A DNA stretch of 64,000 nucleotides from Cellulosimicrobium sp. Marseille-Q4280 (GTDB lineage: Bacteria > Actinomycetota > Actinomycetes > Actinomycetales > Cellulomonadaceae): positions 620,001-684,000 of the forward strand of contig NZ_CALPBY010000003.1 of assembly GCF_943181405.1 (NCBI RefSeq). The letters run 5' to 3'. The notes under the pieces were generated by a model. That model ran no database searches, had not been told where the DNA came from, and was given only the letters and a program-made list of their open reading frames with translations. Position 1 is the first letter of the stretch. Each line of letters opens with the position of its first letter. The translations under genes and the position numbers were made by a program. Positions 21,045-47,697 of this stretch are shown here, in pieces.

Positions 21045-21914
21045 TCAGTGGTCGTGGCCGTCGTCCTGGGGCTCCCCACCGTGCATGTCGAGGCCGCCGT
21101 CGAGCGAGTCACCCGGTCGCACGGGCAGGAAGACGTGCACGTGGCCCTGGTCGGCCGCGACGGCGCGCAGGTCCAGCTGGATCGCCGCGAGGCCCCAGGT
21201 CTCGACCGCGCGCGAGCGCAGCTCGCCGGCGAGGGCGTAGAGGTCCGGCGCGGCGCTCGCGTCCGCCGAGCGCGCGAGGTCGACGGCGTCGACCGTGTCG
21301 CCGATCAGCTCGAGCGAGGTGAGCATCCCGTTCCGCACGATGTTGTGCTCGGACGTCCCGCTCGCGAGGTTCTCGGTCTCGCCCGTCAGCGCGTCGAGCT
21401 CCGCGCGCCACGACGCCACGTCCTCGGCGGTGGGCGGCGTCGCGGTCGTGCCGTCCACCGGAAGCACCGCGTGGAGGTCGTGCAGCACCGGCACGAGCTC
21501 GGCCTGGACGTGGCGTGCGTGCTCGATCGAGGCCGTGAGGTTCTCGGCGTCGCGCTCGACCTCGGCGGCCTCGAGCTCGGCGACGCGTGCCGGGTCGACC
21601 GCGAACGCGCCGTCGGCGGGCTCGTCGCCGTCGCCGCGCGTCAGCGCGACGACGAGGACGACGACCACCACGGCGACCGCGAACGCACCGGCGGCGACCA
21701 GGACCCAGCCGCGTGGTCCGGCGCCCTGCAGCCACCGGCGCACGCGGACGTGCGCCGGTGGCCGAGGCTCGGGGCGGCCGGCACCGCCCCGGTCGGCAGG
21801 ACGGGAACGGGCCGCGGACGGCGTCGTGCGCTCGGTCGGGCGCCTCGGCGCCGGACGTGCTCCGGTGCGCGGTGCCCGCGTGGTGGAGGGCCGGCCCCCG
21901 GTCCGCTGTGCCAT
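21045..21914 (-). CDS. single-pass membrane protein with His-rich C-terminus, unknown function
   Basis: I do not recognise a family. The 289-residue product has an Arg/Pro-rich cytoplasmic N-terminus (about 1-65), one membrane span near 70-92 (WVLVAAGAFAVAVVVVVLVV), and a mainly helical outside domain rich in Ala, Glu and Asp. The C-terminus is rich in His, Met and Asp (VHVFLPV, then LDMHGG and DDGHDH), which suggests metal binding. The ATG at 21914 is used. It follows the ThuA/dehydrogenase fusion by 136 bp of strong hairpins and is the last gene of operon A, the position comparable to the membrane-anchored 36484-37161 protein in operon B. It may be a surface partner or metal chaperone for the secreted fusion; that is inference. 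Confidence 0.75.
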   Translation of the reverse strand: MAQRTGGRPSTTRAPRTGARPAPRRPTERTTPSAARSRPADRGGAGRPEPRPPAHVRVRRWLQGAGPRGWVLVAAGAFAVAVVVVVLVVALTRGDGDEPADGAFAVDPARVAELEAAEVERDAENLTASIEHARHVQAELVPVLHDLHAVLPVDGTTATPPTAEDVASWRAELDALTGETENLASGTSEHNIVRNGMLTSLELIGDTVDAVDLARSADASAAPDLYALAGELRSRAVETWGLAAIQLDLRAVAADQGHVHVFLPVRPGDSLDGGLDMHGGEPQDDGHDH

Positions 21915-21973
21915 GTCGTCGTCCCGTCCTGTGGTCGTGGTCGTCCCGCGCGGTCCGTCCGCGCGGTCGAGGT

Positions 21974-22010
21974 CCTCGCCCGTCCGGCCGGACCGGCCGG
22001 ACGGGCGAGG
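21974..22010 (-). terminator. strong hairpin after the ThuA fusion gene
   Basis: Perfect 16-bp stem CCTCGCCCGTCCGGCC with a 5-nt loop. It is the second of two hairpins after the stop at 22051 and before the membrane-protein gene; it may be an attenuator or transcript-protecting stem rather than a full stop. Confidence 0.5.
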
Positions 22011-22013
22011 GGT

Positions 22014-22045
22014 GCCGGTGGCGGGCCTGCAGGCCCGCCACCGGC
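22014..22045 (-). terminator. 32-bp perfect palindrome after the ThuA fusion gene
   Basis: GCCGGTGGCGGGCCT, GC, then the exact complement; it begins 6 nt past the stop codon. Could act as a terminator, an attenuator or an RNA 3'-end barrier. Confidence 0.5.
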
Positions 22046-22050
22046 GGTCG

Positions 22051-25000
22051 TCACCCGCAGGTGTGGGCGTCGAACGGCACTTCGAGGGTGGCCGTCCTGT
22101 CCCCGATCGTCGCCGTGACGGTCGCAGCGCCCGCCTCGACGTCCGCGGCACGGACGGCGAACGACTGGTACGCGCTCGTGCCGACCGCGACCTCGCCGAA
22201 CTCCTTCGTGCCGTACGGCGTGGCGAGGGTGATCGCCGCGGCCGCCTCGTCGGCGTTCGTCGCGCGGACCGCGACGTACGCCTTGCCGGCGAGGCAGCGG
22301 ACCGAGGCCTCGGCCTCGACCGCCACCGCGGGCTCCTCGTCACCGGCCGTGAGCCGGAACCAGTCGAACGCCACGGTGACGGGCGTCTCCTGCTCCGGGC
22401 CGATCGCCATGACGCCGATCGAGGTGAGCGGCACGTCGTTCGTCACCGGCTCCCCGAGGGGCTCCCAGCTCACGCCGCCGTCGCTCACCCAGCCCTGGTA
22501 CGTCGTGCCGGTCTTCTCCAGCCGCAGGTACCAGTACCCGGACTCCGTGGAGTCCGCGATCTCCAGCGCACGGTTACCGCCGTTGCCGAACTGGGCGCCC
22601 TTCTCCGAGACGAGCTCGGCACCGAGGTTCAGCGCGGCACCCGGCGCGTTCTTGGCGACCACGTCGAGCTTGACGTAGTTGTCGTCGTCCGCGTACGCGA
22701 GCAGCCCGGCGAGCTGCCAGCGGTGCGCGAGCGGCGCCTCGAACCGCGTCTCGGCGACCCAGTCGCCCTCCGGTGCCGTCTGGAGGACGAAGTTGCGCGG
22801 GTCGCCGTTGGCGGCGGCGTTGATGTCGCCCGGCTGGGTGGTGATGCGCAGCTCGCCGTCGGCGACCGCGGCCTTCGTGCCGTCGTACCGCACGACCGCG
22901 TCCCAGCGGCAGCCGTCGAGGGCGTCGCCCTCGAACTCGTCGCTCGGCTCGCGCACGCCGTCGTCCGGCTCCGCACCGCTGACGCGGACGTAGTCGACCC
23001 GTGCGACGGTGTCCGCCGTGGCGGTGTCACCGCCGGCCATGACGCCGAACGTCGCGCCGTCCTTCACCGGGGCGGCCCCGGCGAGGTCGGTCCACGTCTC
23101 GCCGTCGGCGGAGTACGCCGCCGTGATCTGCTCCCCGTCGGACACGAGGCGCAGGTGGATGGCCGAGGGGAAGTCCGCGGCGACGTTCTCCTGGCCGTGC
23201 CAGGTCCGCGTACCGCCCGTCTCGGTCTGGAACTCGAGGAAGCGGTTGCCGTTCTGGTTCTTCGTGAACGCGAGCTTGGTGTACTCGTCGTCGTCCACGT
23301 GCACCAGGAGGCCTGCGTGCTGCCAGTGCCGCGCGAGCGGCACGTCGAGCTTCGTCTCCAGCGTCCAGGCACCGGCGGGCGCGGGCTGACCGAGGTAGCT
23401 GATCGGACCGGTCACCGCCTCGTTGATGTCGCCCTGGACGACCGGCAGGACCGCGTGGCCGTCGGCGACGCCGATCGCGCTGCCCTCGGCCTGGCGCACG
23501 ACGGTCCACCGACCGTCGAGCTCGTCGCCGTCGAACTCGTCCGACGCGTGCGCGAGGCACTGCGGCGGCGTCTGCTCGCCCGGCTCCTCCGGCGTGGTCG
23601 GGTCGTCGTCGAAGACGAAGCCCTGGAACTCGACCGCGCTGGTCGTGGTCGTGCTGTGGGCGGTGACGAACATGCCCACGTCCTGGACGGCCGCGGCGCC
23701 CGGGAGCGTCTGCGGCTCGCCGATCTGGGTGAACGTCTCCCCGTCCTTGCTCCAGGAGGCCGTGTACAGGTCGCCGTCACGGACGATGCGCACCCACGCG
23801 GGGTAGCTCGTCGTGCTGGCGCTGGTCGACGTCGCGAGCTGGCCGCTCGCGTTGCCGCGCAGCCACTCGAACCCACCGCTGGGGCGGATGCCGAGCGCGG
23901 CGTAGCCCTGCGAGCTGCCCGCCTGGGTGACATCGTTGCGGACGATGATCCCCGCCTTGGCGGACCCGTTCGAGTTGCCCTGGCTGTTGATCCGCACCGT
24001 CGCCGACCAGTTCTCGTCGGCGGCCTGCTCCCGGTAGACGGAGGAGTACTCGTTCGTCCCCTGCCACATGTTCGCGCCGCCCGACGTGACGAGGTACCTG
24101 CCCTCGGCGAGCTGCTCGAACGTCCCGTTCGCGTTGGTGAAGGTCTTCATGCCGGCGAAGAGGTCGCCGACCTGGGCGACCACGATGCGGGAGCGGGTGT
24201 ACAGGCCCTTGTCGTTGGTGGCGACCGCGGTCAGCTCGTAGTTGTTGTCCTCGGTCACCTCCCACGTCGCCTCGTACGGTGCCTCGGTGTCCGTCCCGAT
24301 CGACTCGCCGTCGACGAAGAACTCGACCTCGGTGACCGTGTTCTCGGTGTCGTCGGCCTCCGCCGTCACCGTGATCTCGCCCTGCTCGAGCCGGACTCCC
24401 GCCTCGGGCGCGGTGATGCTGACCTTCGGGCGCGTCGTGTCCGACACGGCCTTGCCGTCCGCCTCGATGAAGTTGAGGCGGCGCTCGCCCGCACCGGGGA
24501 AGACGACGTAGAGCGTGAACGGCTCCATGGGGTCCGTCGCCTCGACGCGCACGTCGGTGAACGTGCCGAGCCCGGTCTGCGGGATCTCGGCCGTGCCGAG
24601 CAGCTCCCCGTCCGGGGCGTCGCGACGCAGCTCGACCGTGCCCTCGGCCGCCGAGGCGACCCGCAGGTTCAGCGCCTCGACGCCGTACAGGCTCACGGGG
24701 TCGTACGACGCCCACGCGCCGTCGGCGCCGGTGATGACGGACCCGCCGCCCTCGACGTCACGGCTCGGGATCGTCGTCGTGCCCTCGCTCGCCGCGGTGA
24801 ACTCGGCCTCGCGCTTCTTCGGGAAGATGAGCGTCGTGTCCGAGCCCGTGAGCGCGGGCACGTCACCCTCGCCCCCGTTGTCCGTGTACCGGGCGTCGAT
24901 CACGTAGAAGACGTTCATGTCCTCGCTGTGGCCGCCGCCCAGGCTCGTCTGCACCGTGCCCGTGCGGCCGTGGAGCGGCTCGGCCGGGTGCGCGTGCGCG

Positions 25001-27642
25001 TCGTGCCCGAGCGCCGGCTGGATGACGACCTGCTCGTCGTCGATCGCGTCGCCGTCCGGCGAGTCCTCCGCGTCCGTCACCGCGACGTCCCACGTGATCG
25101 CGTCGCCGAAGTTGAAGAACGCACCCGTCGGCGGCAGGCCGAAGTCGACCTCGGGCCGCGTGTTGCCCACCGTGATCGGCACGGTCGCCGTGCCGGTCTT
25201 GCCCGCGGTGTCGGTCACCGTGAGGCGGGCGTCGTAGACGCCGTTCGCGGTGTAGGTGTGGCTCGGCGCGACCTCGGTCGAGTCGGTCTGGCCGTCACCG
25301 TCGAAGTCCCACGCGTACGTGAGGTCCTCGTTCTCCGGGTCGGAGCTCTCCGAGCCGTCGAAGGAGACGACGAGCGGCGCGATGCCGGAGTCGGGCGTCG
25401 CCGTCGGCGACGCGACCGGCGAGCGCGAGCCCGACACGTAGTCGATCCGGTGCAGGCCCGAGCTGGGGTTGTCGCGACCGAAGCCGCCGCCCCAGTCGAG
25501 CACGTACATCGAGCCGTCCGGCCCGAACTTCGAGTCGATCGGCGCGAGGAACTCCTCGTCGGGAAGGAACGGGTTGACCTTCTCGACGTCGCTGGCGCCG
25601 GAAGCGGCCTCAGGGTCCTTGAGGTCGATCGAGTACATCGCGTTGCGCGCCCACTCGTAGAAGAAGGGCTTGCCGTCGTAGTACTCGGGGAACTTGGTGT
25701 CGGACTCCAGCTCGGGGTCGAACTGGTAGAACGGACCGCCCATGGGGGCGAGGCCGCCGCCCGCGTTGATGGCACCGGGCACCGAGGAGCGCTGGTACCC
25801 GTAGAAGAGGTCGGCCGGCTGCGCCGGGGGCAGCTCGGTCAGGCCCGTGTTGAGGACCGAGTCGTTGACCGGGGCGTCGCAGTCGAAGAAGTCACCGACG
25901 GTGACCGGGCTCGTCCGGTAGTCGACGTCACGGAACGGCTCGTTGTTCCCCATGCACAGGGGCCACCCGAAGTTCCCGGCCTCCTTGACGAGGTTCCACT
26001 CCGCGATGCCCGCGGGACCGCGGTTGGCCAGGTTGTCCGACCCGTTGTCCGGCGAGTAGTCGGCGACGCCGAGGTTGCCGGTCTCCGGGTCGATCGTGAA
26101 CCGGAACGGGTTGCGGAAGCCCATCGCGTAGATCTCGGGGAGCGTCTTGTCGTCCGCGTCGGCCGCCTCGTCGAAGAGGTTGCCCTCGGGGATCGAGTAC
26201 GTGCCGTCGGCCTCGGGGTGGATGCGCAGGACCTTGCCGCGCAGGTCGTTCGTGTTCGCCGACGTCGCGCGCGCGTCGTGCAGACGTCCGGGCCGCTCCG
26301 AGAGGGGCGCGTAGCCGCCCGACGGCTCGGAGTGCGGGTTCACGTCGTCGCCGACGCCGATGTACAGGTCACCGCTCGCCGGGTCGACGATGATCCCACC
26401 GCCGGTGTGGCCCGGCTCGTCGGGCAGACGCCCGGCGGGGATCTCGATGACCACGACCTCCGACGCCGGGTCGATGACGGTCGCACCCGGTCCGTCCGAC
26501 GTCACGGTGAACCGCGAGACGCGGCTGACGAAGTTCGCGGGGTCCGAGTCGTCCTCGCTCGCCGGTGAGTAGTACTGGTAGAGGTACCCGTTGGTCGCGA
26601 AGTCCTTGTCGAGCGCGAGCCCGAGGAGCCCGTCCTCGCCGCCCGAGTAGACCGGGATCGTGAGCGCCGTCGTCGTGTTCTGCGTCCGCGGGTCGTAGAC
26701 GCGGATCTGCCCGCGCACCAGCTCGGTGTAGAACACGCGGCCGTCGGGCGCGATGTCGATGCCGAACGGGGCGCTCGTGTTGGTGTCGAGCGCGACCTTC
26801 TCGAACTGGCTCCAGTCCGTGCCGCCGCAGTCGCCCTCGACCAGGCCCGCGGCCCACTGCACGCCGCCGACGAGGTGCTGCACGAAGTCGGGCTCGTCCG
26901 TGTAGTGCGCACCGAAGTGGCCCATGCCGGTCATCCAGGCGCGGCCGCCGTCGTAGGGCTTGCACCACGAGATGGGGTGGTCGTAGCCCATGGCGTTGCC
27001 GCCCGGGGCGTAGGTCGACTCGTCCATCGTCGCGAGCACGTGCGCGTCGCCCCGCACGTTCGCGGAGAAGTTGTACCACTCGTCGGCACGGTCCCAGCGC
27101 TGCGGGAGGTGCTCCGTGGACGGGTGCGTCCGGTCCTCGACGCGGACCGTGCCGGGCAGGCCGGGGCTCGTCCCGGTGGCGGCGTGACCGGGCATCAGCG
27201 CGCCGATCATGTCGTCCCACCACTGGTAGCTGCCGCGCATGTCCGTGGCGTTGTGGATGGCGACGATGCCGCCGCCCGCCTGCTGGTAGCGCTCCAGAGC
27301 GGCCTTCTGGTCCGCGTCCCACGGGTCGCCCGAGGTCTGGAACATGACGAGGGCGTCGTACTCGGCGAGTCCCTCGTCGGTGAAGACGCTCGAGTCCTCC
27401 GTGTGGTCGGACTCGATGCCCACCTCGGCGAACGCGGCCTCGAGCACCGGGGTGCCCTGCGTGATCGCCTCGGTGTGCCGGAACTGGGTCGTCTTGGTGA
27501 AGATGAGCACCTTGTGCTCGTCGTCGGGCTCGATCGGTACGACGTCGGCCGTGGCCATCGTGACGGGCGCGAGCGTGAACGCCAGCGCTCCGATGGTCAG
27601 GGCCGCGACGGACCTCCCCCTGCGGGGACGTCGTGCGGTCAT
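22051..27642 (-). CDS. secreted ThuA - sorbosone/glucose dehydrogenase-like - PKD - CBM6 - lectin-like fusion protein
   Basis: A 1863-residue exported protein. A signal peptide (about 1-33, ending ATMATA-type) is followed by a ThuA-like amidotransferase-fold domain (about 43-267; VLIFTKTTQFRHTEAI, GGGIVAIHNATD, DEWYNF). Next is a PQQ-type sugar dehydrogenase beta-propeller (about 278-735; GGEDGLLGLALDKDF, HTGGGIIVDPASGDLYIGVGD, GKVLRIHPE, YAMGFRNPFRFTIDP). Then come a PKD domain (about 740-828), a His-rich GHDAHAHPAEPLHG segment, a CBM6-like domain (about 945-1065), an Ig-like domain (about 1070-1160), three DUF1349-type concanavalin-like modules (about 1160-1345, 1362-1560, 1570-1760) and a C-terminal beta domain. 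Start ATG follows GGAGG by 8 nt. Likely a cell-surface oxidoreductase bound to glycans. Substrate and PQQ dependence are unproven, and no PQQ biosynthesis genes are in view. Paralogue of 37448-42460. Confidence 0.88.
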   Translation of the reverse strand: MTARRPRRGRSVAALTIGALAFTLAPVTMATADVVPIEPDDEHKVLIFTKTTQFRHTEAITQGTPVLEAAFAEVGIESDHTEDSSVFTDEGLAEYDALVMFQTSGDPWDADQKAALERYQQAGGGIVAIHNATDMRGSYQWWDDMIGALMPGHAATGTSPGLPGTVRVEDRTHPSTEHLPQRWDRADEWYNFSANVRGDAHVLATMDESTYAPGGNAMGYDHPISWCKPYDGGRAWMTGMGHFGAHYTDEPDFVQHLVGGVQWAAGLVEGDCGGTDWSQFEKVALDTNTSAPFGIDIAPDGRVFYTELVRGQIRVYDPRTQNTTTALTIPVYSGGEDGLLGLALDKDFATNGYLYQYYSPASEDDSDPANFVSRVSRFTVTSDGPGATVIDPASEVVVIEIPAGRLPDEPGHTGGGIIVDPASGDLYIGVGDDVNPHSEPSGGYAPLSERPGRLHDARATSANTNDLRGKVLRIHPEADGTYSIPEGNLFDEAADADDKTLPEIYAMGFRNPFRFTIDPETGNLGVADYSPDNGSDNLANRGPAGIAEWNLVKEAGNFGWPLCMGNNEPFRDVDYRTSPVTVGDFFDCDAPVNDSVLNTGLTELPPAQPADLFYGYQRSSVPGAINAGGGLAPMGGPFYQFDPELESDTKFPEYYDGKPFFYEWARNAMYSIDLKDPEAASGASDVEKVNPFLPDEEFLAPIDSKFGPDGSMYVLDWGGGFGRDNPSSGLHRIDYVSGSRSPVASPTATPDSGIAPLVVSFDGSESSDPENEDLTYAWDFDGDGQTDSTEVAPSHTYTANGVYDARLTVTDTAGKTGTATVPITVGNTRPEVDFGLPPTGAFFNFGDAITWDVAVTDAEDSPDGDAIDDEQVVIQPALGHDAHAHPAEPLHGRTGTVQTSLGGGHSEDMNVFYVIDARYTDNGGEGDVPALTGSDTTLIFPKKREAEFTAASEGTTTIPSRDVEGGGSVITGADGAWASYDPVSLYGVEALNLRVASAAEGTVELRRDAPDGELLGTAEIPQTGLGTFTDVRVEATDPMEPFTLYVVFPGAGERRLNFIEADGKAVSDTTRPKVSITAPEAGVRLEQGEITVTAEADDTENTVTEVEFFVDGESIGTDTEAPYEATWEVTEDNNYELTAVATNDKGLYTRSRIVVAQVGDLFAGMKTFTNANGTFEQLAEGRYLVTSGGANMWQGTNEYSSVYREQAADENWSATVRINSQGNSNGSAKAGIIVRNDVTQAGSSQGYAALGIRPSGGFEWLRGNASGQLATSTSASTTSYPAWVRIVRDGDLYTASWSKDGETFTQIGEPQTLPGAAAVQDVGMFVTAHSTTTTSAVEFQGFVFDDDPTTPEEPGEQTPPQCLAHASDEFDGDELDGRWTVVRQAEGSAIGVADGHAVLPVVQGDINEAVTGPISYLGQPAPAGAWTLETKLDVPLARHWQHAGLLVHVDDDEYTKLAFTKNQNGNRFLEFQTETGGTRTWHGQENVAADFPSAIHLRLVSDGEQITAAYSADGETWTDLAGAAPVKDGATFGVMAGGDTATADTVARVDYVRVSGAEPDDGVREPSDEFEGDALDGCRWDAVVRYDGTKAAVADGELRITTQPGDINAAANGDPRNFVLQTAPEGDWVAETRFEAPLAHRWQLAGLLAYADDDNYVKLDVVAKNAPGAALNLGAELVSEKGAQFGNGGNRALEIADSTESGYWYLRLEKTGTTYQGWVSDGGVSWEPLGEPVTNDVPLTSIGVMAIGPEQETPVTVAFDWFRLTAGDEEPAVAVEAEASVRCLAGKAYVAVRATNADEAAAAITLATPYGTKEFGEVAVGTSAYQSFAVRAADVEAGAATVTATIGDRTATLEVPFDAHTCG

Positions 27643-27745: not shown

Positions 27746-28639
27746 TCAGGGCTCCGGTACGGGCATCAGTCCCTTCAGGTGGGCCAGGCCATCGACGGCG
27801 ATGGCGTCCTGGGTCGGGGCCAGCGGCCGCCAGATCGAGGCGGCGGTGGCGATCGTCGCGTTCTCGGCCGTGAAGGACTCGATCACGAGCGGGCCGTCGT
27901 AGCCCGTCTCGTCGAGCGCGGCAAGGAACGCGGGCCAGTCGAGGTGGTCGGCGCCGGGTGCACCGCGGTCGTTGCCGCAGACCTGGACGTGCGCGATGCG
28001 CTCGCCCGCGCGCCGCACGGCGGCGGGCAGGTCCGTCTCCTCGATATTCATGTGGTAGATGTCGAGCATCAGGCCGATGCCCTCGGCGGGCAGTCGCCGC
28101 ACGACCTCGAGGCCCTGGTCGACCGTGTTGACCAGGCTCGTCTCGTACCGGTTGAGCGGCTCGAGCCCGACGACCACGCCCGCCCCGACGGCGTGCTCGA
28201 CCACGGGTCCGAGGTTCTCGGCGAGCTCGTCGTAGGCGGCCTCGCGCTCCGCGGGGCTCAGCCGCCACGTGCGGCCGACCGACGCGTACGCCGGTCCGCC
28301 GATCACGGGCGCCCCGACCGTGCGCGCGGCGTCGGCGACGCGGCGCAGGTAGTCCTGCGTGGACCGGACGGTCGCGGCGTCGGTCGCGACGAGCTCGCGC
28401 CCGTCGCCCATGACGAGCGACACGCTCGCCCCGAGGCCGTGGTCGGCAAGGACGCGCGCGGCGAGCGCCGGGTCCCAGTCGCCGGGGTTCTCGACGGGGA
28501 GCTCGAGCACGTCGAACCCCCAGCCGGCGACGCGCGGCGCGATCTCGCGCAGGGACGCGTCGGTGAGCGGGGAGGTCCACACCCAGGTGTTGACGCCGAG
28601 GCGGCGGGGGCGCAGGGCGGGTCGGTCCGGTAGAGCCAC
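27746..28639 (-). CDS. sugar phosphate isomerase/epimerase family TIM barrel (tagatose 3-epimerase-like)
   Basis: The 297-residue AP-endonuclease-2/xylose-isomerase-like TIM barrel resembles the D-tagatose/D-psicose 3-epimerase branch. The four metal-binding acidic/His positions are visible: GLEPLNRYE (about 159-167), LDIYHMNIEE (about 192-201), HVQVCGNDRGAPG (about 218-230) and VIESF (about 252-256). The GTG start at 28639 is preceded by GAGAGAG. It lies between the binding-protein gene and the ThuA fusion gene of operon A. Family members isomerise keto-sugars, and relatives in 3-keto-glycoside pathways carry out eliminations or hydrations, so a role downstream of the Gfo/Idh dehydrogenase is plausible; the exact substrate cannot be read. 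Confidence 0.87.
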   Translation of the reverse strand: MALPDRPALRPRRLGVNTWVWTSPLTDASLREIAPRVAGWGFDVLELPVENPGDWDPALAARVLADHGLGASVSLVMGDGRELVATDAATVRSTQDYLRRVADAARTVGAPVIGGPAYASVGRTWRLSPAEREAAYDELAENLGPVVEHAVGAGVVVGLEPLNRYETSLVNTVDQGLEVVRRLPAEGIGLMLDIYHMNIEETDLPAAVRRAGERIAHVQVCGNDRGAPGADHLDWPAFLAALDETGYDGPLVIESFTAENATIATAASIWRPLAPTQDAIAVDGLAHLKGLMPVPEP

Positions 28640-28760: not shown

Positions 28761-28796
28761 GGTCGGTCAGCGGGTCGGTCAGCGGGTCGGTCAGCG
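28761..28796. repeat. 12-bp tandem repeat that repeats the stop codon
   Basis: Three exact copies of GGTCGGTCAGCG. Read on the minus strand each unit carries TGA in the same frame, so the binding-protein gene ends in three in-frame TGA codons spaced four codons apart. Confidence 0.8.
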
Positions 28797-35256: not shown

Positions 35257-35285
35257 AACGTAGGGGCACTTCTGACGACCGTCAA
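35257..35285 (-). promoter_or_regulatory. promoter of operon A
   Basis: TTGACG (35285-35280), 17-bp spacer, TACGTT (35262-35257), then 7 nt to the ATG at 35249 on the minus strand. The -35 box is one arm of the operator. Confidence 0.8.
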
Positions 35286-35292
35286 CCAAAAG
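35269..35292. promoter_or_regulatory. ROK operator, site A
   Basis: A 24-bp element that covers the -35 and half of the spacer of the operon A promoter. It matches sites B (47717-47740) and C (47999-48022) at most positions; shared features are a 5' CTT, an arm ending in CG, CGTCAA, and a terminal AAG. Binding by the ROK regulator at 48083 is inferred. Confidence 0.75.
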
Positions 35293-40400: not shown

Positions 40401-42460
40401 GACGGGTCGAAGACCCCCGGCAGGACCCGGTTGATGTCGACGAGGTCGTCACGCTGCTCGCCGTCGAGCTGGAACGAGTACATCCGGCCCTGGTTCCACT
40501 CGCCGAACAGTGCCTTGCCGTCCCAGTACTCCGGCCACTTGACGTCCGAGTCGAGCTCGGGGTCGTAGTCGTACACCGGTCCGCCCATGGGCGCACCGCC
40601 GCCGCCGATCTCCGGGAAGAGCGGGTTCGTCTGGTAGCCGTACCAGACCTCGGCCTCGATCGCCCCGGGCAGCTGCTGCAGACCCGTGTTGTTGGGAGAG
40701 TTGTTCACCACGCCCGCGGCGCAGTCGAAGGCCGCGCCGGACTGCCCCGTGGCGAAGTTGTAGTCGACGTAGTCGTTGTTCGCGCCGGTGCAGTACGGCC
40801 AGCCGTAGAACCCCGGGTCGCTCACGACGTTCCACTCGACCGTGCCGGCCGGGCCACGCGTCGCGCTGGCGCTGCCCGCGTCAGGACCGTAGTCCCCGAC
40901 GAGCACGTTGCCCGTCGAGGGGTCGACGCCGATGCGGAACGGGTTGCGGAAGCCCATCGCGAAGACCTCGGGCTTCGTCTGCGCGGTGCCCGGCGCGAAC
41001 ATGTTCCCCTCGGGGATCGTGTACGTGCCGTCGTCCTCCGGGTGGATCCGCAGGACCTTGCCGCGCAGGTCGTTCGTGTTGGCCGACGTGCGCTGCGAGT
41101 CGTAGTTCTGCCGCCCCGCGCGCTCGTCGATCGGCGCGAAGCCGCCCGACTCGAACGGGTTGGTGTTGTCACCGGTGACGACGAAGAGGTTGCCCTCGGC
41201 GTCGAAGACCATGTCGCCGCCCGCGTGGCAGCACGTCTCGCGCTGGGTCGGGATGACGAGGACCTTCTCCTCCGACGCGAGCGAGATCGTCCGCGCCGCG
41301 GCGTCGTAGTCGAACCGCGAGACCCGGTTGTGGGGACCGTCGGTCCCGACGTCCTGGGGCGACCAGAAGAGGTAGACCCAGCCGTTCTCGGCGAAGTCGG
41401 GGTCGAGCACGACGCCCGTGAGACCGTCCTCGTTGGCCTGCGTGACCGACAGCGTCGCGGCGGTGGTCGTCTGGTTCGTCGCCGGGTCGATGACACGCAC
41501 GCGCCCGTCGCGCTCGACGTAGAAGACCGTCCCGTCGGGGGCGACGTCGAGCATCATCGGGTTCGCGGTGTTCTCGTCGAGCGGCACCATCTCGTAGCTG
41601 TCGGACTGCGTGGCGTTGCAGTCCGAGGGCACGACGCCCGCCGCGGTCTGGATGCCGCCCAGCAGGTGCTGGAGGAACTCCGGCTCCGCGTACGACTCGT
41701 CCGTGTGGCCGCCGCCGGTGTACCAGGAGCGGCCGCCGTCGTAGACCTGGCACCACGCCGTGGGGTGCTCGGCGCCCATCGCGCCGGAGCCCGCGGAGTA
41801 GGTGGTCTCGTCGAGGCTCGCGAGCACGTGCACCGTGTCGCGCGGGTTCGTGCGGAAGTTGTACCACTCGTCGAAGCGGTCCCAGCGCGCCGGGAGGTGC
41901 GCCGTGGACTCGTGGACGTGGTCCTCGACCTTGATGGTCGCGTCCTGGTTCTGCGGGTGCGCGCTGAAGTAGGCGCCGACGAGCTCGCCGTACCACGGCC
42001 AGTCGTACTCGGTGTCGGACGCCGCGTGGATGCCCGCGTACCCGCCGCCGGACTGGACGTAGCGCTCGAACGCCGCCTGCTGGTCGTCGTTCAGCACGTC
42101 GCCGGTCGTGGAGAGCCACACCACGGCCTCGTACTGCGCGAGGTTCTCGTCGGTGAACGCCCCCGCGTCCTCCGTGGCCGTCACCTCGAAACCGTTATCG
42201 GTACCGAGCTGCTGGATCGCCGCGATCCCCGCGGGGATCGACCCGTGGCGGAACCCGGCGGTCTTGCTGAAGACGAGCACGTCGAACGGGACGGTCTCCG
42301 CGGCCGCGGCCACGGGTGCTGTCGCGATCGGGCTCGTGGAGGGAAGGGCTGCCGTGGCGGACGTCGCCGTCGCCAGGGTCAAGGGCAGAGCGACCGCTGC
42401 CGCGGCGACCGCCGCGACCGTGCGCCTCCGGGCGCGCGATCCTCCAAGCACGTTTCTCAC
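37448..42460 (-). CDS. secreted ThuA - sorbosone/glucose dehydrogenase-like - PKD - CBM6 - lectin-like fusion protein, second copy
   Basis: 1670 residues from the GTG at 42460, which follows GAGGAG by 5 nt; a longer frame to 42715 would put about 85 Arg/Pro-rich residues before the signal peptide. Order of domains: signal peptide (about 1-38), ThuA-like domain (about 55-275; VLVFSKTAGFRHGSIP, GGGYAGIHAASD, DEWYNF), sugar-dehydrogenase propeller (about 285-730; NEDGLTGVVLDPDF, CCHAGGDMVFDAEGNLFVVTGD, FAMGFRNPFRIGVDP), PKD, a cradle segment with GHDSHAHPMEEL, CBM6-like domain, a second PKD, two DUF1349-type modules and a C-terminal beta domain ending in SCA. The paralogue in operon A has an Ig-like domain in place of the second PKD and one more DUF1349 module. 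Presumed surface glycan oxidation; reaction unproven. Confidence 0.87.
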   Translation of the reverse strand: MRNVLGGSRARRRTVAAVAAAAVALPLTLATATSATAALPSTSPIATAPVAAAAETVPFDVLVFSKTAGFRHGSIPAGIAAIQQLGTDNGFEVTATEDAGAFTDENLAQYEAVVWLSTTGDVLNDDQQAAFERYVQSGGGYAGIHAASDTEYDWPWYGELVGAYFSAHPQNQDATIKVEDHVHESTAHLPARWDRFDEWYNFRTNPRDTVHVLASLDETTYSAGSGAMGAEHPTAWCQVYDGGRSWYTGGGHTDESYAEPEFLQHLLGGIQTAAGVVPSDCNATQSDSYEMVPLDENTANPMMLDVAPDGTVFYVERDGRVRVIDPATNQTTTAATLSVTQANEDGLTGVVLDPDFAENGWVYLFWSPQDVGTDGPHNRVSRFDYDAAARTISLASEEKVLVIPTQRETCCHAGGDMVFDAEGNLFVVTGDNTNPFESGGFAPIDERAGRQNYDSQRTSANTNDLRGKVLRIHPEDDGTYTIPEGNMFAPGTAQTKPEVFAMGFRNPFRIGVDPSTGNVLVGDYGPDAGSASATRGPAGTVEWNVVSDPGFYGWPYCTGANNDYVDYNFATGQSGAAFDCAAGVVNNSPNNTGLQQLPGAIEAEVWYGYQTNPLFPEIGGGGAPMGGPVYDYDPELDSDVKWPEYWDGKALFGEWNQGRMYSFQLDGEQRDDLVDINRVLPGVFDPSVGFDRPMDFDFGPDGALYVIDWGSGFGGNNDSSGVYKVNYVQGDPAPIARASADVTSGAAPLTVQFSSEGTRHPAGDPLTLQWTFGDGSEPSTEANPVHTYTENGSYTAQLVATDENGATGVANVTIVVGNEAPTVSITFPENGGFFEWGDQVRYEIAVDDPDGEVTCENVTLFTSLGHDSHAHPMEELTGCEGTLQTARDEGHGIESNIFWVVEAMYTDDGGAVGVPLTANDLQILQPKLLQSEFFTSTGRLEGSTSAGDPGVQTETTGDTAGGGLNIGFIEVDDWWAHEPISLANVDSITLRAASEPGGTVSLRWDDPEGPEIGSLTVPAGAWQTYSDITAELHDVPEGSGTLYFVQTTGQSNVNWMVVNGRGVTDNVRPSIDTFEVTPTSGTAPLTVTATATATDPEDEAVKFAWDAGLGDGFVDGTGSFEVTYDEPGEYRLQVRATDERGAYSVEYTTVTVEAEQTDPGMCFSGRSDDFLGAELDEDRWTVLNRDQNLAVEDGQLVVPTTATDFYGTNNTTVPNLVLQDLPDGPFTATAKLTLPARQQYQQAGLVIWEDQDNYAKMVIQGRSAAADPATRIFQFIREENAAPNEVGESNSAALGAAFPDTVYVRFVSDGASLQAAYSADGTTFTTMPQTKSIADLENAQIGLVSLKGNGTASPILDAQFDWFHITPDDTASAPGPDDEFDGDALDACRWTVVNEDPTGYRVADGSLQIDTTPTDIYGTDNRPVPNLVLQDQPGEEWTVETVVDGSALDRQYQQGGLLVYGDDDNYVKLDYVVDNTAGQAKNARIELRSEVGGVVQNPQPQTGSLTGDVWHLRLTRSGDTFAGAYSADGTTWTTFDESVTNAPAAGAQVGLFALGAAADTGAPASFDYFRVVDDEPAPLAVTVTAEPRCIAGKVFLAVRATNDDEVPLAVTLETPYGSKSFADVAPGKAAYQSFAARAVAVDAGSVTVTATDAEGRTFSETVEHAAQSCA

Positions 42461-42568: not shown

Positions 42569-42679
42569 GTCGTCGGCCGCTGCGTCGCGGCCTGCGACCT
42601 CCTCTCGTCCGACCGGTCCGCCGGCCCGCACCGTCGCGGGTCCGGCAGCGCCGGTGGTTCCAGTGGTTCCGAGCGCAGA

Positions 42680-42701: not shown

Positions 42702-42722
42702 CCCGCTCGGGTCATCGCCCGG

Positions 42723-43895
42723 TCAGGGCTCGACCCAGCTTCCGGACGCCGCGCTGCGCTCCACCGCGTCGAGCACGCGCTGGACCGCGAGACCGTCCGC
42801 GAACGTCGGCGACGGCTGCGTGCCCGACGCGATCGCCTCGACGAGGTCGACCACCTGGTGGGTGAACGCGTGCTCGTACCCGAGGCCGTGACCCGCGGGC
42901 CACCAGTTCGCGACGTACGCGTGCTCGGGCTCCGTGACGACGATGCGCCGGAAGCCCGCCGTCGCGGCGTCCTCGGCCGCGTCGAAGAAGTGCAGGACGT
43001 TCATGTCCTCGAAGTCGAACGCGAGCGAGCCCCGGGAGCCGTTGATCTCGAGGCGGATCGCGTTCTTGCGCCCGTAGGCGAACCGGGTCGCCTCGAAGGT
43101 CCCGATCCCACCCCCGGAGAGACGCGCGAGGAAGATCGCGGCGTCGTCGACCGTGACCGGACCACGCTCGGCGCCGCCCTGCCCGGTGAGACCGGTGAAC
43201 TCCGTGGCGACGGGACGCTCGGTCACGAAGGTCTCGAGCAGACCCGACACGCTCGTCACGCGCTCGCCCGTGATGAACTGCGCGAGGTCGATGACGTGCG
43301 CGCCGATGTCGCCCAGCGCGCCGCTGCCGGCCTTGGTCTTGTCGAGACGCCACGAGAGCGGGGCGTCCTCGTCGGCGATCCAGTCCTGCAGGTACTGGGC
43401 CCGCACGTGGCGGACGGTACCGATCCGGCCGTCGGTGACGAGCCGGCGCGCGAGCTGGATCGCCGGGACACGACGGTAGGTGAAGCCGACCATCGCGACC
43501 TGGCCGCGCGAGGCGGCCGCCTCCGCCGCGGCGACCATCTGCTCCGCCTCGGCGACCGTGTTGGCGAGCGGCTTCTCGCACAGCACGTGCTTGCCGGCCT
43601 CGAGCGCGGCGATCGCGATCTCCGCGTGGGTGTCGCCGGGGGTGCACACGTCGACGAGGTCGACGTCGTCCCGTGCGACGAGGGACTGCCAGCTCGTCTC
43701 CGTGGACTCCCACCCGAGACGCTCCGCGGCGGTCTTGACCGCCTCCGGGTTGCGCCCGCCGAGCACGCGCATGCGCGGCTCGAGGGGGAGGTCGAAGAAC
43801 CGGGGGGCGGTACGCCATGCCTGCGAGTGCGCTGCCCCCATGAACGAGTACCCGACCATGCCGACGCCGAGCTGCGCGCCGTTGCTGTGTGTCAT
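42723..43895 (-). CDS. Gfo/Idh/MocA family oxidoreductase (operon B, levoglucosan-dehydrogenase-like)
   Basis: 390-residue NAD(P)-dependent dehydrogenase. Rossmann motif GVGMVGYSFMGAAHSQAW (about 10-27), VDLVDVCTPGDTHAEIAI, GKHVLCEKPLANTVAEAEQM with the catalytic Lys, GFTYRRVPAIQLARRLV, YLQDWIADEDAPLSWRLDK, and AGSGALGDIGAHVIDLAQF with the catalytic Asp/His pair. The LQDW...PLSWR and GSGALGDI segments closely recall bacterial levoglucosan dehydrogenases and related C3-oxidising sugar dehydrogenases, so 3-keto-sugar formation is a reasoned guess. ATG at 43895 follows AAAGGAA. It lies between the binding-protein gene and the ThuA fusion gene. Confidence 0.93.
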   Translation of the reverse strand: MTHSNGAQLGVGMVGYSFMGAAHSQAWRTAPRFFDLPLEPRMRVLGGRNPEAVKTAAERLGWESTETSWQSLVARDDVDLVDVCTPGDTHAEIAIAALEAGKHVLCEKPLANTVAEAEQMVAAAEAAASRGQVAMVGFTYRRVPAIQLARRLVTDGRIGTVRHVRAQYLQDWIADEDAPLSWRLDKTKAGSGALGDIGAHVIDLAQFITGERVTSVSGLLETFVTERPVATEFTGLTGQGGAERGPVTVDDAAIFLARLSGGGIGTFEATRFAYGRKNAIRLEINGSRGSLAFDFEDMNVLHFFDAAEDAATAGFRRIVVTEPEHAYVANWWPAGHGLGYEHAFTHQVVDLVEAIASGTQPSPTFADGLAVQRVLDAVERSAASGSWVEP

Positions 43896-43988
43896 GACGT
43901 TCCTTTCGTGCGCGCGCCCACGGTCCGGCCGGGCTCTCACCCGGGCGGACCGTGGGCGCGGTCCGCGTGCTGCTGTCTGCCTAGGCGC

Positions 43989-45056: not shown

Positions 45057-45148
45057 GGGATCTCCTTCGATGCTGTCCTGCTGGGAGCGGGGACTACGGG
45101 GGTGGTGCTTGAGGACGGGGTGGGTGGTGCGACGACGACGCCGGGGCG

Positions 45149-46180
45149 TCATGTCCGGCGGACGAGGCGCTGCTGGAGCAGGACCGCGCCGACGATGATG
45201 GCCCCCTTGACGATCTGCTGGACCGAGCTGTCGACGTCGTTGAGGATGAAGACGTTGGTGAGCGTCGTGAAGATGAGGACGCCCAGGACCGTGCCGACGA
45301 TCGTGCCGCGGCCGCCCACGAGGAGCGTGCCGCCGACGACCACCGCGGCGATGGCGTCGAGCTCGAGGAGCAGACCGTTGGTCGAGGCGCCGGCGCTCGT
45401 GCGAGCGAGGATCATCACCGCGGCGATGCCGGCCGTGAGGCCGGAGAGCGCGTACACGTACATGAGGTGACGCTTGACCTTGATGCCGGCGAGGCGCGCG
45501 GCCTCGGGGTTGCCACCGACGGCGACGGTACGACGACCGAACGTCGTGCGGTTGAAGAGGAACCAGCCGAGCACGGCGACGAGCGCGAAGATCCAGACGA
45601 TCTTCGGGACGCCGATGAGGTTGCCCTTGAAGACGTCGTCGAACGCCTGGACGTCCACGATCTGCGTGCGCCGCTGCGCGATGAGCTCGGCGAGCCCGCG
45701 CGCGGCGACGAGCATCGCGAGCGTCGCGATGAACGCCACGACCCTGCCGTACGCGATGATCACGCCGTTGATGAGGCCGGCGCAGAGGCCGACGGCGACC
45801 GCGCACACGAGCATCACGGGCCAGCCGTACGACTGGGTCGCGAGGGTCGTCGCCCAGACCGAGGCGAGCCCGAGGACCGAACCGACCGACAGGTCGATGC
45901 CTCCCGTCGTGATGACGAACGTCATCCCGATGCTCACCACTCCGAGGACGGAACCCAGGCTGAGGATGGTCATGAGGTTGCTGACGCTCGCGAAGCGTTC
46001 CCCCCCGGTCGCGAAGCCCACGACGCACAGGAGGAGCAGGGCCACGACCAGACCCACGTTGCGTCCCGCTGCTCCTGACAGGAGGCCGCTGCGACGCGAG
46101 CCGCTCGCCGCGTCCTGCTTCTCGACGCGGGCTGACTCGTCCGCGTTCGGCGTCGACGCCGACACCCTTTGCTCGCTCAC
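45149..46180 (-). CDS. sugar ABC transporter permease (RbsC family, operon B)
   Basis: 343-residue permease from the GTG at 46180, which overlaps the ATPase stop (GTGA) behind GGAAGGAAG. Landmarks: VITTGGIDLSVGSVLGLAS (about 86-104), GLINGVIIAYGRVVAFIATLAML, GRRTVAVGGNPEAARLAGIKV (ATPase-contact loop) and AAVVVGGTLLVGGRGTIVG. It probably works as a homodimer because the operon has only one permease gene. Confidence 0.94.
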   Translation of the reverse strand: MSEQRVSASTPNADESARVEKQDAASGSRRSGLLSGAAGRNVGLVVALLLLCVVGFATGGERFASVSNLMTILSLGSVLGVVSIGMTFVITTGGIDLSVGSVLGLASVWATTLATQSYGWPVMLVCAVAVGLCAGLINGVIIAYGRVVAFIATLAMLVAARGLAELIAQRRTQIVDVQAFDDVFKGNLIGVPKIVWIFALVAVLGWFLFNRTTFGRRTVAVGGNPEAARLAGIKVKRHLMYVYALSGLTAGIAAVMILARTSAGASTNGLLLELDAIAAVVVGGTLLVGGRGTIVGTVLGVLIFTTLTNVFILNDVDSSVQQIVKGAIIVGAVLLQQRLVRRT

Positions 46181-47697
46181 GCGACACTTCCTTCCATGAC
46201 CATGTCGAGCACCTGGTGCTCGTCGATCGATGCGGTGGGTCCTTCGTGCACCACGCGACCCTCGGAGATGACGAGGACGCGGTCCGCCAGACCCAGGACT
46301 TCGGGGATCTCGCTCGAGACGACGACGACGGCGGCGCCCTCGTCGGCGAGGCGGCGGATCAGGGCGTAGATCTCCGCGCGCGCCCCGACGTCCACGCCGC
46401 GCGTGGGCTCGTCGAGGAGCAGGACGCGGCACCCGTGGACGAGCCACCGGGCGAGCATCGCCTTCTGCTGGTTCCCGCCCGAGAGCGTGCGGATGGGGCG
46501 GTCCACGCCGGTGGGGCGCAGCTCGAGCGAGTCGGCCTGCTCCTTCGCCGCGCGGCGCTCGGCCCGCTCGTCGAGGAAGCCTCCCTTGGCGAACCGGGAG
46601 AAGGTCGAGAGCGTGACGTTGCGGTAGACCGGCTCGTCGAGGAGGAGCCCCTGGCTCTTGCGCTCCTCGGGCGCGAGACCGATGCCCGCGTCCACGGCCG
46701 AGGCGACCGAACCGACGCGCAGCCGGCGCCCGTCGACCTCGACGCGGCCGGCGGTCGCGCGGCGCGCCCCGTAGACGGTCTCGAGGATCTCCGACCGTCC
46801 CGAGCCGACGAGGCCCGCGAGCCCGACGATCTCCCCGGCACGGACCTGCATGCTCACGTCGGCGAACGTGCCGCGCAGGGACAGGCCCGCGACGTCGAGG
46901 ACGACGGGGGCGCCGTCGGGCAGCTCGGTGGCGTCCGGGAACACGTACTCGACGGACCGGCCCGTCATGAGGGTGATGAGCTTGACCGTCGGCGTCTCGG
47001 AGACCGGGAGGTTCTGGGCCACGGTGCGCCCGTCCTTGAGGACGGTGATGCGGTCGCCGATCTCCCGGATCTCCTCGAGCCGGTGCGAGATGTAGACGAC
47101 GGCGACACCTGCGGCCGTGAGCTCCTTGACGACGCGGAAGAGGTTGCCGACCTCCTCGGAGTCCAGGACCGCCGACGGCTCGTCCATGACGATGACGCGC
47201 GCGTCGTGCGACAGGGCCCGCGCCATCGAGACGATCTGCTTCCCGGCGGCCGAGAGGTTCCCGACCTCCTTGCTCGGCGAGATCTCCGAGTGGCCGAGCC
47301 GCTTGAGGATCTCCCGCGTGCTGCGCACCGCCTCGCGGCGCTGGGAGAACCCCATCGTGGACAGCTCGTGACCGAGGTAGACGTTCTCGGCGACGGTCAG
47401 GCCGTCGACGACGTCGAGCTCCTGGTACATCGTCGCGACCCCGTGCCGCAGCGCGGCGACCGGGTCGGAGATGTTGATGGGCTCCCCGTCGAGGAGGATC
47501 TGCCCTTCGGTCGGCTGGTGGGCGCCGGCGAGCACCTTGATGAGCGTGGACTTGCCGGCGCCGTTCTGACCGAGAAGGCAGTGGACCTCACCGGGGAGGA
47601 TCTCGAGGTCCACCCCGTCGAGCGCTCGCGCTCCGGGGAAGACCTTGACGATGCCCTGCATCTGCAGGAACGGCTGGTGGGGGTCTGCTCTGACCAT
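46177..47697 (-). CDS. sugar ABC transporter ATP-binding protein (RbsA-like, operon B)
   Basis: 506 residues, the normal size for a two-domain RbsA-type ATPase. First domain: Walker A GQNGAGKST, signature LSAAGKQIVSMARAL, Walker B VIVMDEPSAVLD. Second domain: GLVGSGRSEILE, LSGGNQQKAMLARWL, LLLDEPTRGVDVGAR. The ATG at 47697 is chosen because a TAGGTT box lies exactly 7 nt upstream, making a leaderless transcript; a longer frame reaching 47733 would cover the promoter. First gene of operon B. Confidence 0.95.
   Translation of the reverse strand: MVRADPHQPFLQMQGIVKVFPGARALDGVDLEILPGEVHCLLGQNGAGKSTLIKVLAGAHQPTEGQILLDGEPINISDPVAALRHGVATMYQELDVVDGLTVAENVYLGHELSTMGFSQRREAVRSTREILKRLGHSEISPSKEVGNLSAAGKQIVSMARALSHDARVIVMDEPSAVLDSEEVGNLFRVVKELTAAGVAVVYISHRLEEIREIGDRITVLKDGRTVAQNLPVSETPTVKLITLMTGRSVEYVFPDATELPDGAPVVLDVAGLSLRGTFADVSMQVRAGEIVGLAGLVGSGRSEILETVYGARRATAGRVEVDGRRLRVGSVASAVDAGIGLAPEERKSQGLLLDEPVYRNVTLSTFSRFAKGGFLDERAERRAAKEQADSLELRPTGVDRPIRTLSGGNQQKAMLARWLVHGCRVLLLDEPTRGVDVGARAEIYALIRRLADEGAAVVVVSSEIPEVLGLADRVLVISEGRVVHEGPTASIDEHQVLDMVMEGSVA

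What the first reader, a model, noticed from the sequence alone, without database searches (positions are those of the whole stretch)
21045..47697. Two parallel operons repeat the same cast of parts
Operon A and operon B each encode an RbsA-type ATPase, RbsC-type permease(s), a binding lipoprotein, a Gfo/Idh/MocA dehydrogenase, a xylose-isomerase-like TIM barrel, a giant secreted ThuA/dehydrogenase fusion and a single-span surface protein. Gene order differs, and the two TIM barrels and binding proteins are from different branches, so this is not a simple recent tandem duplication. It may be a two-substrate, surface-oxidation-plus-import system not described as a unit.
Basis: partly seen in the sequence, partly recalled or inferred. 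Interest (0 to 1): 0.85.

Follow-up and report, generated by a model that had tools for sequence, protein, structure and literature searches.

The report
Two-module sugar-cleaving locus, one shared switch
A soil bacterium carries two look-alike gene sets, tied together by one switch sequence, that appear to cut sugars off plant material with giant secreted enzymes, import them and finish processing them inside the cell; it gives a possible home to an enzyme whose activity was published but never explained.

Summary
In a Cellulosimicrobium genome, 15 genes form two modules (A, B), each with Rbs-type ABC genes, a Gfo/Idh/MocA enzyme, a TIM barrel, a giant ThuA-GSDH fusion and a one-span protein; ROK, ThuA and DHDPS-like genes lie beside them. 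The module order is kept in 5 of 5 congeners read. A and B partners are 22-44% identical; the split is old.

(2) The B fusion matches, in domain order and truncated mass, M768_06655 of C. cellulans, a published secreted beta-xylosidase/beta-glucosidase of unexplained mechanism. (3) Inside partners resemble 3-keto-sugar enzymes; a paralogue fuses ThuA-GSDH to a 3-keto-disaccharide hydrolase domain. (4) 'Surface oxidation' is unproven: 54 of 54 dereplicated fusion cores keep the catalytic His/Arg/Asn, none has Lys377 or Arg408 of the sGDH PQQ site, and pqqB/pqqC were not found in the genus genomes searched.

Best reading: extracellular glycoside cleavage by ThuA-GSDH, uptake, 3-keto processing. 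The chemistry is inferred.

The parts
46177..47697 (-). RbsA-type ABC ATPase, module B
   Evidence: PF00005 x2; 87-92% identical in five congeners
45149..46180 (-). RbsC-type permease, module B
   Evidence: PF02653
43989..45056 (-). sugar-binding lipoprotein, module B
   Evidence: PF13407 1e-40
42723..43895 (-). Gfo/Idh/MocA enzyme, module B, levoglucosan-dehydrogenase-like
   Evidence: PF01408/PF22725; PDB 4h3v 1.5e-192, 6a3f 2.2e-96; NCBIfam LevoglcsnDh 384 bits, cut-off 650
37448..42460 (-). predicted secreted ThuA-GSDH-PKD-CBM6-PKD-GH43_C2 x2-CTD fusion, module B (start uncertain; longest ORF to 42715)
   Evidence: mass arithmetic
37451..37744 (-). C-terminal ~95-aa domain (CTD) of the B fusion
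36484..37161 (-). one-span surface protein of module B; predicted mature N-terminus is His
   Evidence: no Pfam; position conserved; N-terminus seen also in L174 and L176
35445..36446 (-). TIM barrel of module B (2-hydroxy-3-keto-glucal hydratase-like)
   Evidence: PF01261; PDB 2zds 2.9e-166, 8ro4 6e-34; 97-99% in congeners
35270..35292 (+). operator-like palindrome before module A (1 mismatch)
33990..35249 (-). Gfo/Idh/MocA enzyme, module A (start uncertain)
   Evidence: PF01408/PF22725; PDB 4h3v 1e-53
32311..33993 (-). RbsA-type ABC ATPase, module A
31214..32314 (-). RbsC-type permease 1, module A
30135..31217 (-). RbsC-type permease 2, module A
28791..30023 (-). sugar-binding lipoprotein, module A
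   Evidence: PF13407 9.6e-30; probe for 80 named loci
27746..28639 (-). TIM barrel, module A (ketose 3-epimerase superfamily)
   Evidence: PF01261; PDB 8yeb 3.4e-41
22051..27642 (-). predicted secreted ThuA-GSDH-PKD-CBM6-Big7-GH43_C2 x2-CTD fusion, module A
22054..22347 (-). C-terminal ~95-aa domain (CTD) of the A fusion
21045..21914 (-). one-span surface protein of module A, predicted extracellular helical bundle
   Evidence: conserved family of 22 aligned rows; model pLDDT 87.5
47718..47740 (+). operator-like palindrome before module B (0 mismatches)
48000..48022 (+). operator-like palindrome before ROK (0 mismatches)
48083..49264 (+). ROK-family regulator
   Evidence: PF00480 2.7e-57
49339..50004 (+). 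stand-alone ThuA-domain protein
   Evidence: PF06283 3e-42; beside ROK also in G262
50021..50929 (+). DHDPS-family aldolase/lyase-like gene
   Evidence: PF00701 2.3e-23

Best explanation
One ROK-controlled regulon with two parallel glycoside-utilisation modules. Outside the cell each module's ThuA-GSDH fusion, held near plant polymers by its CBM6 and concanavalin-like domains, releases the sugar (or a keto/unsaturated sugar) from beta-glycosides. The Rbs-type importer takes up the small product. Inside, the Gfo/Idh/MocA enzyme and the TIM barrel carry out 3-keto-sugar steps (oxidation or reduction at C3, hydration or isomerisation) to give an ordinary hexose or pentose. ROK senses a product and releases all three promoters. 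Shown: gene content, conservation, shared palindrome. Shown in print for a protein of the same architecture in C. cellulans: secretion and aglycone release from beta-xylosides and beta-glucosides. Inferred: the 3-keto chemistry, ThuA as the bond-breaking domain, GSDH as a redox or substrate-holding partner, ROK binding the palindrome. My confidence by step: one regulon about 0.85; fusion is a secreted glycosidase about 0.75; 3-keto chemistry about 0.5.
For: Module order conserved in 5 of 5 congeners read. Palindrome: 3 sites in the window, 0 expected from 100 shuffles, though the pattern was drawn from these sites. Independent of that: 3 in-locus sites also in G005, G009 and G012, and one between ROK and module A in G179; reversed control 0 in 7 of 7 genomes; 64 of 80 operon-A loci at <=4 mismatches (51 of 66 outside the genus), reversed control 0 of 80. 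M768_06655 (PMC4562250; parts 1-4 of 5 read): order ThuA, GSDH, PKD, CBM_6, PKD as in the B fusion. Its active form of 118 kDa lacks about 500 residues; B-type and third fusions give 504-524, against 714-731 for A, 413-432 for the C7 paralogue and 151-166 for a lone paralogue, taking the mature start 2-20 residues before ThuA. What would be lost is the CTD and concanavalin-like end, leaving ThuA, GSDH, PKD and CBM6. Gfo_B scores best with levoglucosan dehydrogenase among NCBIfam families; its module's TIM barrel matches 2-hydroxy-3-keto-glucal hydratase. A paralogue in this genome is ThuA-GSDH-PKD-3-keto-disaccharide hydrolase, a CTD protein is GSDH-PKD-TIM barrel, and three CTD proteins carry 3-keto-disaccharide hydrolase domains.
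Against: M768_06655 is matched by architecture and truncated mass, not sequence; C. cellulans strains also have a third fusion in this locus with the same architecture. The paper puts the full-length protein at ~200 kDa on a gel; B-type fusions compute to 172-174 kDa and the A fusion to 194-196, which on that point fits A better. The assays I read in the methods for the fusion's substrates followed the aglycone, so the sugar product is unknown. Half of the sampled fusions lie without the transporter genes (15 of 30), and 31 of 66 operon-A loci outside the genus lack a fusion core. None of 54 dereplicated GSDH cores has Lys377 or Arg408, so redox activity is uncertain. NCBIfam cut-offs for levoglucosan dehydrogenase are not reached. 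A fourth palindrome lies before a myo-inositol-1-phosphate synthase gene in G000, G005, G009 and G012, which this reading does not explain. G262 and G140 show no site at <=2 mismatches; 16 of 80 operon-A loci show none at <=4.
Confidence: 0.5

Rival explanations
1. The fusion is an ordinary (non-redox) glycoside hydrolase of a new family, catalysis in ThuA or in the propeller; the GSDH domain is a degenerate binding propeller. The modules import and process plain sugars.
For: PMC4562250 reports activity in buffer with calcium; no redox partner is listed in the assay. Lys377 and Arg408 of the sGDH PQQ site are absent in 54 of 54 dereplicated fusion cores. pqqB 0 of 20 genomes; pqqC 0 of 20, five of them Cellulosimicrobium, and 6 of 296 in the class.
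Against: His144, Arg228 and Asn229 equivalents are invariant in 54 of 54, unusual for a mere binding propeller. Partner genes and paralogous fusions point to keto-sugar chemistry.
Confidence: 0.27
2. Surface oxidation: GSDH oxidises sugars with PQQ and the oxidised sugars are imported.
For: Pfam GSDH hits well above cut-off; catalytic His and Arg/Asn kept; AA12 enzymes also lack Lys377 yet bind PQQ (PMC6881789 passages); 5 of the 6 pqqC-positive genomes are among the 68 positives; PQQ could also be taken up.
Against: Arg408 absent in 54 of 54 and Arg406 kept in 20 of 54, while 2ism and 2g8s keep both arginines in the printed alignment; TIGR03606 54.5 and 77.4 bits against a cut-off of 434.55; PQQ synthesis genes not found in the genus genomes searched; no electron acceptor recognised among the locus genes.
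Confidence: 0.13
3. An inositol-linked regulon: the modules import and rearrange inositols or inositol glycosides.
For: Fourth palindrome before a myo-inositol-1-phosphate synthase family gene in four of four Cellulosimicrobium genomes searched; Gfo and TIM partners have weak IolG and IolE matches.
Against: IolG 104 and 119 bits against 355, IolE 44 against 290; CBM6 and the published glycosidase activity point to glycans.
Confidence: 0.08

Closest known systems
Levoglucosan (Lgd) pathway clusters, e.g. Bacillus smithii lgdA-lgdB1-lgdB2-lgdC with ABC genes
   Same: Gfo/Idh/MocA-type dehydrogenase, sugar-isomerase-annotated enzymes, ABC importer and binding protein (PMC7676230 passages, PMC10066097 part 1 of 5)
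   Different: Neither Gfo reaches the LGDH cut-off; LacI regulator there, ROK here; giant secreted fusions and two modules here
A. tumefaciens GlycDH / OGE / HYD / Gfo operon (3-keto-glycoside elimination)
   Same: Oxidation, elimination, hydration, reduction logic (PMC10628242 passages); the module-B TIM barrel matches 8ro4, named 2-hydroxy-3-keto-glucal hydratase; that 8ro4 is this operon's HYD is recalled
   Different: GlycDH and OGE sequences were not compared; the secreted ThuA-GSDH fusion is not mentioned there (ThuA 0 occurrences)
Xyl_I / Xyl_S of C. cellulans F16 (M768_06655)
   Same: Domain order, truncated size and secretion of the B-type fusion
   Different: Gene neighbourhood, regulation and a 3-keto mechanism are not treated in the parts read (1-4 of 5)
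thuEFGKAB trehalose operon of rhizobia
   Same: ThuA domain and a Gfo/Idh/MocA partner with an importer (recalled)
   Different: Importer here is Rbs-type; ThuA is in a predicted secreted fusion with GSDH
PQQ-dependent sugar dehydrogenases (sGDH, Asd, AA12)
   Same: GSDH domain and catalytic His/Arg/Asn
   Different: Lys377 and Arg408 missing; no PQQ synthesis genes found in the genus genomes searched

Membership tests
Levoglucosan dehydrogenase (LgdA) pathway | LGDH equivalog score | tested here: not met
   384 (Gfo_B) and 149 bits (Gfo_A) against cut-off 650
Levoglucosan dehydrogenase (LgdA) pathway | Gfo Lys and Asp/His motif residues present | tested here: inconclusive
   EKP and GDIG.H motifs read by eye in both proteins; the role of these motifs is recalled; not scored
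Levoglucosan dehydrogenase (LgdA) pathway | LgdB1 eliminase homologue | not tested
   LgdB1 sequence not compared
Levoglucosan dehydrogenase (LgdA) pathway | hydratase-type TIM barrel | tested here: inconclusive
   8ro4 E 6e-34 over residues 18-328; activity unknown; LgdB2 itself not compared
Levoglucosan dehydrogenase (LgdA) pathway | linked ABC importer with binding protein | tested here: met
PQQ-dependent GSDH / AA12 | catalytic His144, Arg228, Asn229 equivalents | tested here: met
   130 of 130 non-identical core stretches, 54 of 54 after dereplication at 88%
PQQ-dependent GSDH / AA12 | Lys377 and Arg408 equivalents (bacterial enzymes) | tested here: not met
   0 of 54 each; Arg406 20 of 54; the Lys377 column rests on a weak alignment
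PQQ-dependent GSDH / AA12 | NCBIfam TIGR03606 cut-off | tested here: not met
   54.5 and 77.4 bits against 434.55
PQQ-dependent GSDH / AA12 | PQQ synthesis in the host | tested here: not met
   pqqB 0 of 20 (its control rang only below cut-off); pqqC 0 of 20 and none in the own genome where 6 of 296 of the class are positive
M768_06655 / Xyl_S glycosidase | ThuA-GSDH-PKD-CBM6-PKD order | tested here: met
   (B fusion and third fusion); the A fusion has Big_7 in place of the second PKD
M768_06655 / Xyl_S glycosidase | 118 kDa active form lacking about 500 residues | tested here: met
   504-524 residues for B-type and third fusions, mature start assumed 2-20 residues before ThuA
M768_06655 / Xyl_S glycosidase | full length at ~200 kDa on a gel | tested here: inconclusive
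   B-type 172-174 kDa computed, A 194-196
M768_06655 / Xyl_S glycosidase | sequence identity to M768_06655 | not tested
   its sequence was not met among the records I fetched
3-keto-disaccharide hydrolase (PF06439) | Pfam domain present in fusions A and B | tested here: not met
   no match at E<=1e-3; present in the C1 paralogue at 2.7e-30
thuEFGKAB operon | ThuEFGK-type importer (recalled as MalFGK-type) | tested here: not met
   PF02653/PF13407 Rbs-type importer
D-psicose/allulose 3-epimerase (TIM barrel of module A) | NCBIfam PsicseEpim cut-off | tested here: not met
   137.7 bits against 300
Inositol catabolism (IolE/IolG) | NCBIfam IolE and IolG cut-offs | tested here: not met
   43.8 against 290; 103.8 and 119.3 against 355

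The most novel reading that the evidence does not exclude
ThuA-GSDH proteins are an unrecognised class of extracellular glycosidase that works by a 3-keto (oxidation-elimination) route without NAD and without canonical PQQ binding: GSDH makes or holds the keto form, ThuA breaks the bond, and the product feeds a dedicated importer and 3-keto pathway under one ROK switch. In Cellulosimicrobium these enzymes and dozens of other predicted secreted proteins share a C-terminal Ig-like domain, probably disulfide-closed, that could assemble the reported cohesin-free 'hemicellulosome'.
Probability: 0.25. Interest if true: 0.88.

Novelty: new variant of a known kind. Interest (0 to 1): 0.66.

Why it matters
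A published enzyme (M768_06655) cleaves bulky beta-xylosides and beta-glucosides without any known glycosidase domain. Placing its architecture in a conserved regulon with 3-keto-sugar-like partners gives a testable mechanism and a possible function for ThuA, a domain for which my searches met no mechanism. The fusion core is common: 68 of 296 actinomycete genomes matched its profile at E<=1e-80, though that threshold also admits proteins aligned over the GSDH part only. If redox-type glycoside cleavage happens outside actinomycete cells, plant-biomass breakdown has a branch that hydrolase-based annotation misses. The shared palindrome makes the regulon directly testable.

Tried and rejected
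Recent tandem duplication: rejected. In the core tree (55 rows, midpoint root, two long rows meet) the A fusion sits in a clade of 14 rows from several families and the B fusion in another clade of 21 rows that also spans families; partners are closer to orthologues elsewhere than to each other.

TIM barrel 35445-36446 as part of A: rejected for this locus on spacing and on order in five other genomes. Against this, of 31 operon-A loci outside the genus without a fusion core, 29 carry this TIM barrel nearby, against 6 of 35 with a fusion; the 10-kb flank may hide it behind the long fusion.

Strict levoglucosan, allulose-epimerase or inositol assignment: cut-offs not reached.

First pqqC search had a silent control; repeated over the class it found 6 of 296. 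pqqB's control rang only below cut-off.

Dropped rows: one search scored at most 3 candidates per genome and its list was cut; I followed 30 loci, one each from 30 of its positive genomes, chosen by hand. Of 46 CTD matches in the genome, 40 stretches were fetched; one (L260) only repeats the CTD of L254, so 39 proteins; 32 of them were Pfam-scanned, not counting the two window fusions. One search kept 158 non-identical cores that reach the profile end out of 222 matched frames; 130 include ThuA, some being overlapping pieces of one gene, hence the recount on 54.

Full report
What is there. The window lies in a 4.86-Mb, 12-contig genome; its closest named relatives by the module-A binding protein are Cellulosimicrobium records at 90-96% identity. 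Two modules of the same make-up run on the minus strand from 47697 to 21045, with ROK, a stand-alone ThuA protein and a DHDPS-like gene diverging on the plus strand. Both fusions carry ThuA and GSDH domains at the N-terminus, then PKD, CBM6, a Big_7 (A) or second PKD (B), and concanavalin-like GH43_C2/DUF1349 domains; the final ~95 residues match no Pfam family at E<=1e-3.

Conservation. In five congeners read over the locus (G002, G005, G008, G009, G012) the module order is kept; the DHDPS-like gene was not seen in the stretch read from G008. G009 and G012 have a third fusion behind the one-span protein of A; one search shows rows at a like distance in G004, G006 and G007. The module-B TIM barrel is 97-99% identical among congeners, the two fusions 76-89%. 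A and B partners are only 22-44% identical, and the two fusions fall in separate clades. The duplication is therefore old.

Across 296 genomes of the class, 68 had a match to the ThuA-GSDH profile at E<=1e-80, in 21 of 115 genera; some weaker rows align over the GSDH part only. Of 30 fusion loci outside the genus, one per genome, 16 had RbsA, 15 had RbsA+RbsC+binding protein, 12 had Gfo, 15 had a TIM barrel and 11 had all five classes within the fetched flanks; 13 had none of BP/TIM/Gfo. Some flanks were cut by contig ends. Ten control stretches from 10 of these genomes had none of these classes. In the reverse direction, 80 named loci around the module-A binding protein (best 80 of 451 relatives) hold RbsA in 78, TIM_A2 in 77, Gfo in 69 and ROK in 52. 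A fusion core is present in 47 of 80, and in 35 of 66 outside the genus. In two fusion-less loci the order is TIM_A2, the one-span protein, then the other TIM barrel (L195, L211); the one-span protein was detected in 9 of 31 fusion-less loci. So the importer, Gfo, TIM and ROK form the core, and the fusions are a frequent but not obligatory addition.

One regulon. Three near-identical palindromes lie before module A (35270), module B (47718) and ROK (48000); shuffles expect none, but the pattern was drawn from these sites. Genome-wide at <=2 mismatches there are 4 sites in G000, 4 in G005, 4 in G009 and 5 in G012, three of them in the locus each time; G179, of another family, has one between ROK and module A; G262 and G140 have none; the reversed pattern finds none in all 7. 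Among the 80 named loci 64 carry a site at <=4 mismatches (51 of 66 outside the genus), in most cases about 5 kb upstream of the binding protein where module A begins, with 0 of 80 for the reversed pattern. The extra conserved site lies before a myo-inositol-1-phosphate synthase family gene; I cannot explain it. That ROK binds these sites is inferred.

What the fusion does. PMC4562250 (parts 1-4 of 5 read) purified from C. cellulans F16 a large secreted complex with 27 identified proteins, without cohesin or dockerin. Its key catalytic subunit M768_06655 has ThuA, GSDH, PKD, CBM_6 and PKD, and releases aglycones from beta-xylosides and beta-glucosides. The active short form of about 118 kDa lacks about 500 C-terminal residues. 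Computed on B-type and third fusions, 118.4 kDa leaves 504-524 residues; for the A fusion 714-731, for two paralogues 413-432 and 151-166. Against this, the full-length band at ~200 kDa is nearer to the computed mass of A (194-196 kDa) than of B (172-174). On domain order and truncation I take M768_06655 to be the B fusion's orthologue or the third fusion of the same locus. The methods followed 10-DAP by HPLC and p-nitrophenol by absorbance, so the sugar product is open.

Is it oxidation? In 130 non-identical ThuA-GSDH core stretches, and in the 54 left after dereplication at 88%, the equivalents of His144, Arg228 and Asn229 of sGDH are invariant; Lys377 and Arg408 never occur; Arg406 occurs in 41 of 130 and 20 of 54. 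The roles of His144, Arg228, Asn229, Lys377 and Arg408 are from passages of PMC6881810 and PMC6881789, that of Arg406 is recalled. PMC6881789 shows that an AA12 enzyme also lacks Lys377 and still binds PQQ, so PQQ use is doubtful, not excluded. pqqB was absent in 20 of 20 genomes and pqqC in 20 of 20, five of them Cellulosimicrobium, with a silent control; over the class pqqC was found in 6 of 296, not in this genome. Five of those six (G089, G169, G239, G255, G275) are among the 68 positives, which speaks for PQQ use in some lineages.

Why 3-keto chemistry. Gfo_B is nearest to 4h3v, deposited only as an oxidoreductase domain protein, and then to 6a3f, which I recall as levoglucosan dehydrogenase; NCBIfam places it nearest to that family but below its cut-off. 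The module-B TIM barrel matches 2zds and 8ro4, a 2-hydroxy-3-keto-glucal hydratase, and nothing else in the PDB sequences at E<=1e-3. Described 3-keto pathways use such families (passages of PMC7676230 and PMC10628242, part 1 of PMC10066097). In this genome a paralogue fuses ThuA-GSDH-PKD to a 3-keto-disaccharide hydrolase domain, a CTD protein fuses GSDH-PKD to a TIM barrel, and three CTD proteins carry 3-keto-disaccharide hydrolase domains. Module A's TIM barrel is nearest to ketose 3-epimerases, so A and B may differ in substrate.

The C-terminal domain. It has 46 matches in this genome and 57 in G009 at E<=1e-4. Of 39 proteins fetched (L260 left out as a repeat), 36 end with a Cys in the last four residues and 32 pass a crude signal-peptide check. 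Of 32 Pfam-scanned, many are glycoside hydrolases (GH43, GH92, GH2, GH10, GH30, GH59 and others). The model is a seven-strand beta sandwich (pLDDT 93) with Ig-like rows in the fold comparison. The published active short forms lack about 500 C-terminal residues and are described as monomers, which would fit a role of this end in complex assembly; this is a guess from PMC4562250, not a test.

Verdict. Its oxidation claim is unproven; glycoside cleavage by the fusion is better supported. The 3-keto mechanism is my preferred but inferred reading.

Noticed in passing
window 22054-22347 and 37451-37744; 46 places in the genome: A C-terminal ~95-aa domain without a Pfam match (and no NCBIfam match in 5 proteins tried), mostly ending in Cys, on dozens of predicted secreted proteins, many of them glycoside hydrolases; predicted beta sandwich.
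   Followed up: partly
L319:3267 (own genome C1:465267), L311, L315, L320: A fourth copy of the palindrome lies before a myo-inositol-1-phosphate synthase family gene in four of four Cellulosimicrobium genomes searched.
   Followed up: partly
window 36484-37161: The module-B one-span protein is predicted by eye to start, after signal cleavage, with His (ATA-HGGD), also in L174 and L176; N-terminal His can bind copper in other proteins (recalled).
   Followed up: no
L265, L270: TIM-barrel proteins with the C-terminal domain, one fused to GSDH and PKD; L265 passes the crude signal check, L270 does not. A possible extracellular keto-sugar toolkit.
   Followed up: partly
L182: A record titled Sphaerisporangium cinnabarinum ATCC 31213 carries the locus at Cellulosimicrobium-level identity (91%); it may be misnamed.
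   Followed up: no
L310: In G012 a perfect palindrome lies before an unnamed membrane-protein-like ORF without a Pfam match.
   Followed up: no
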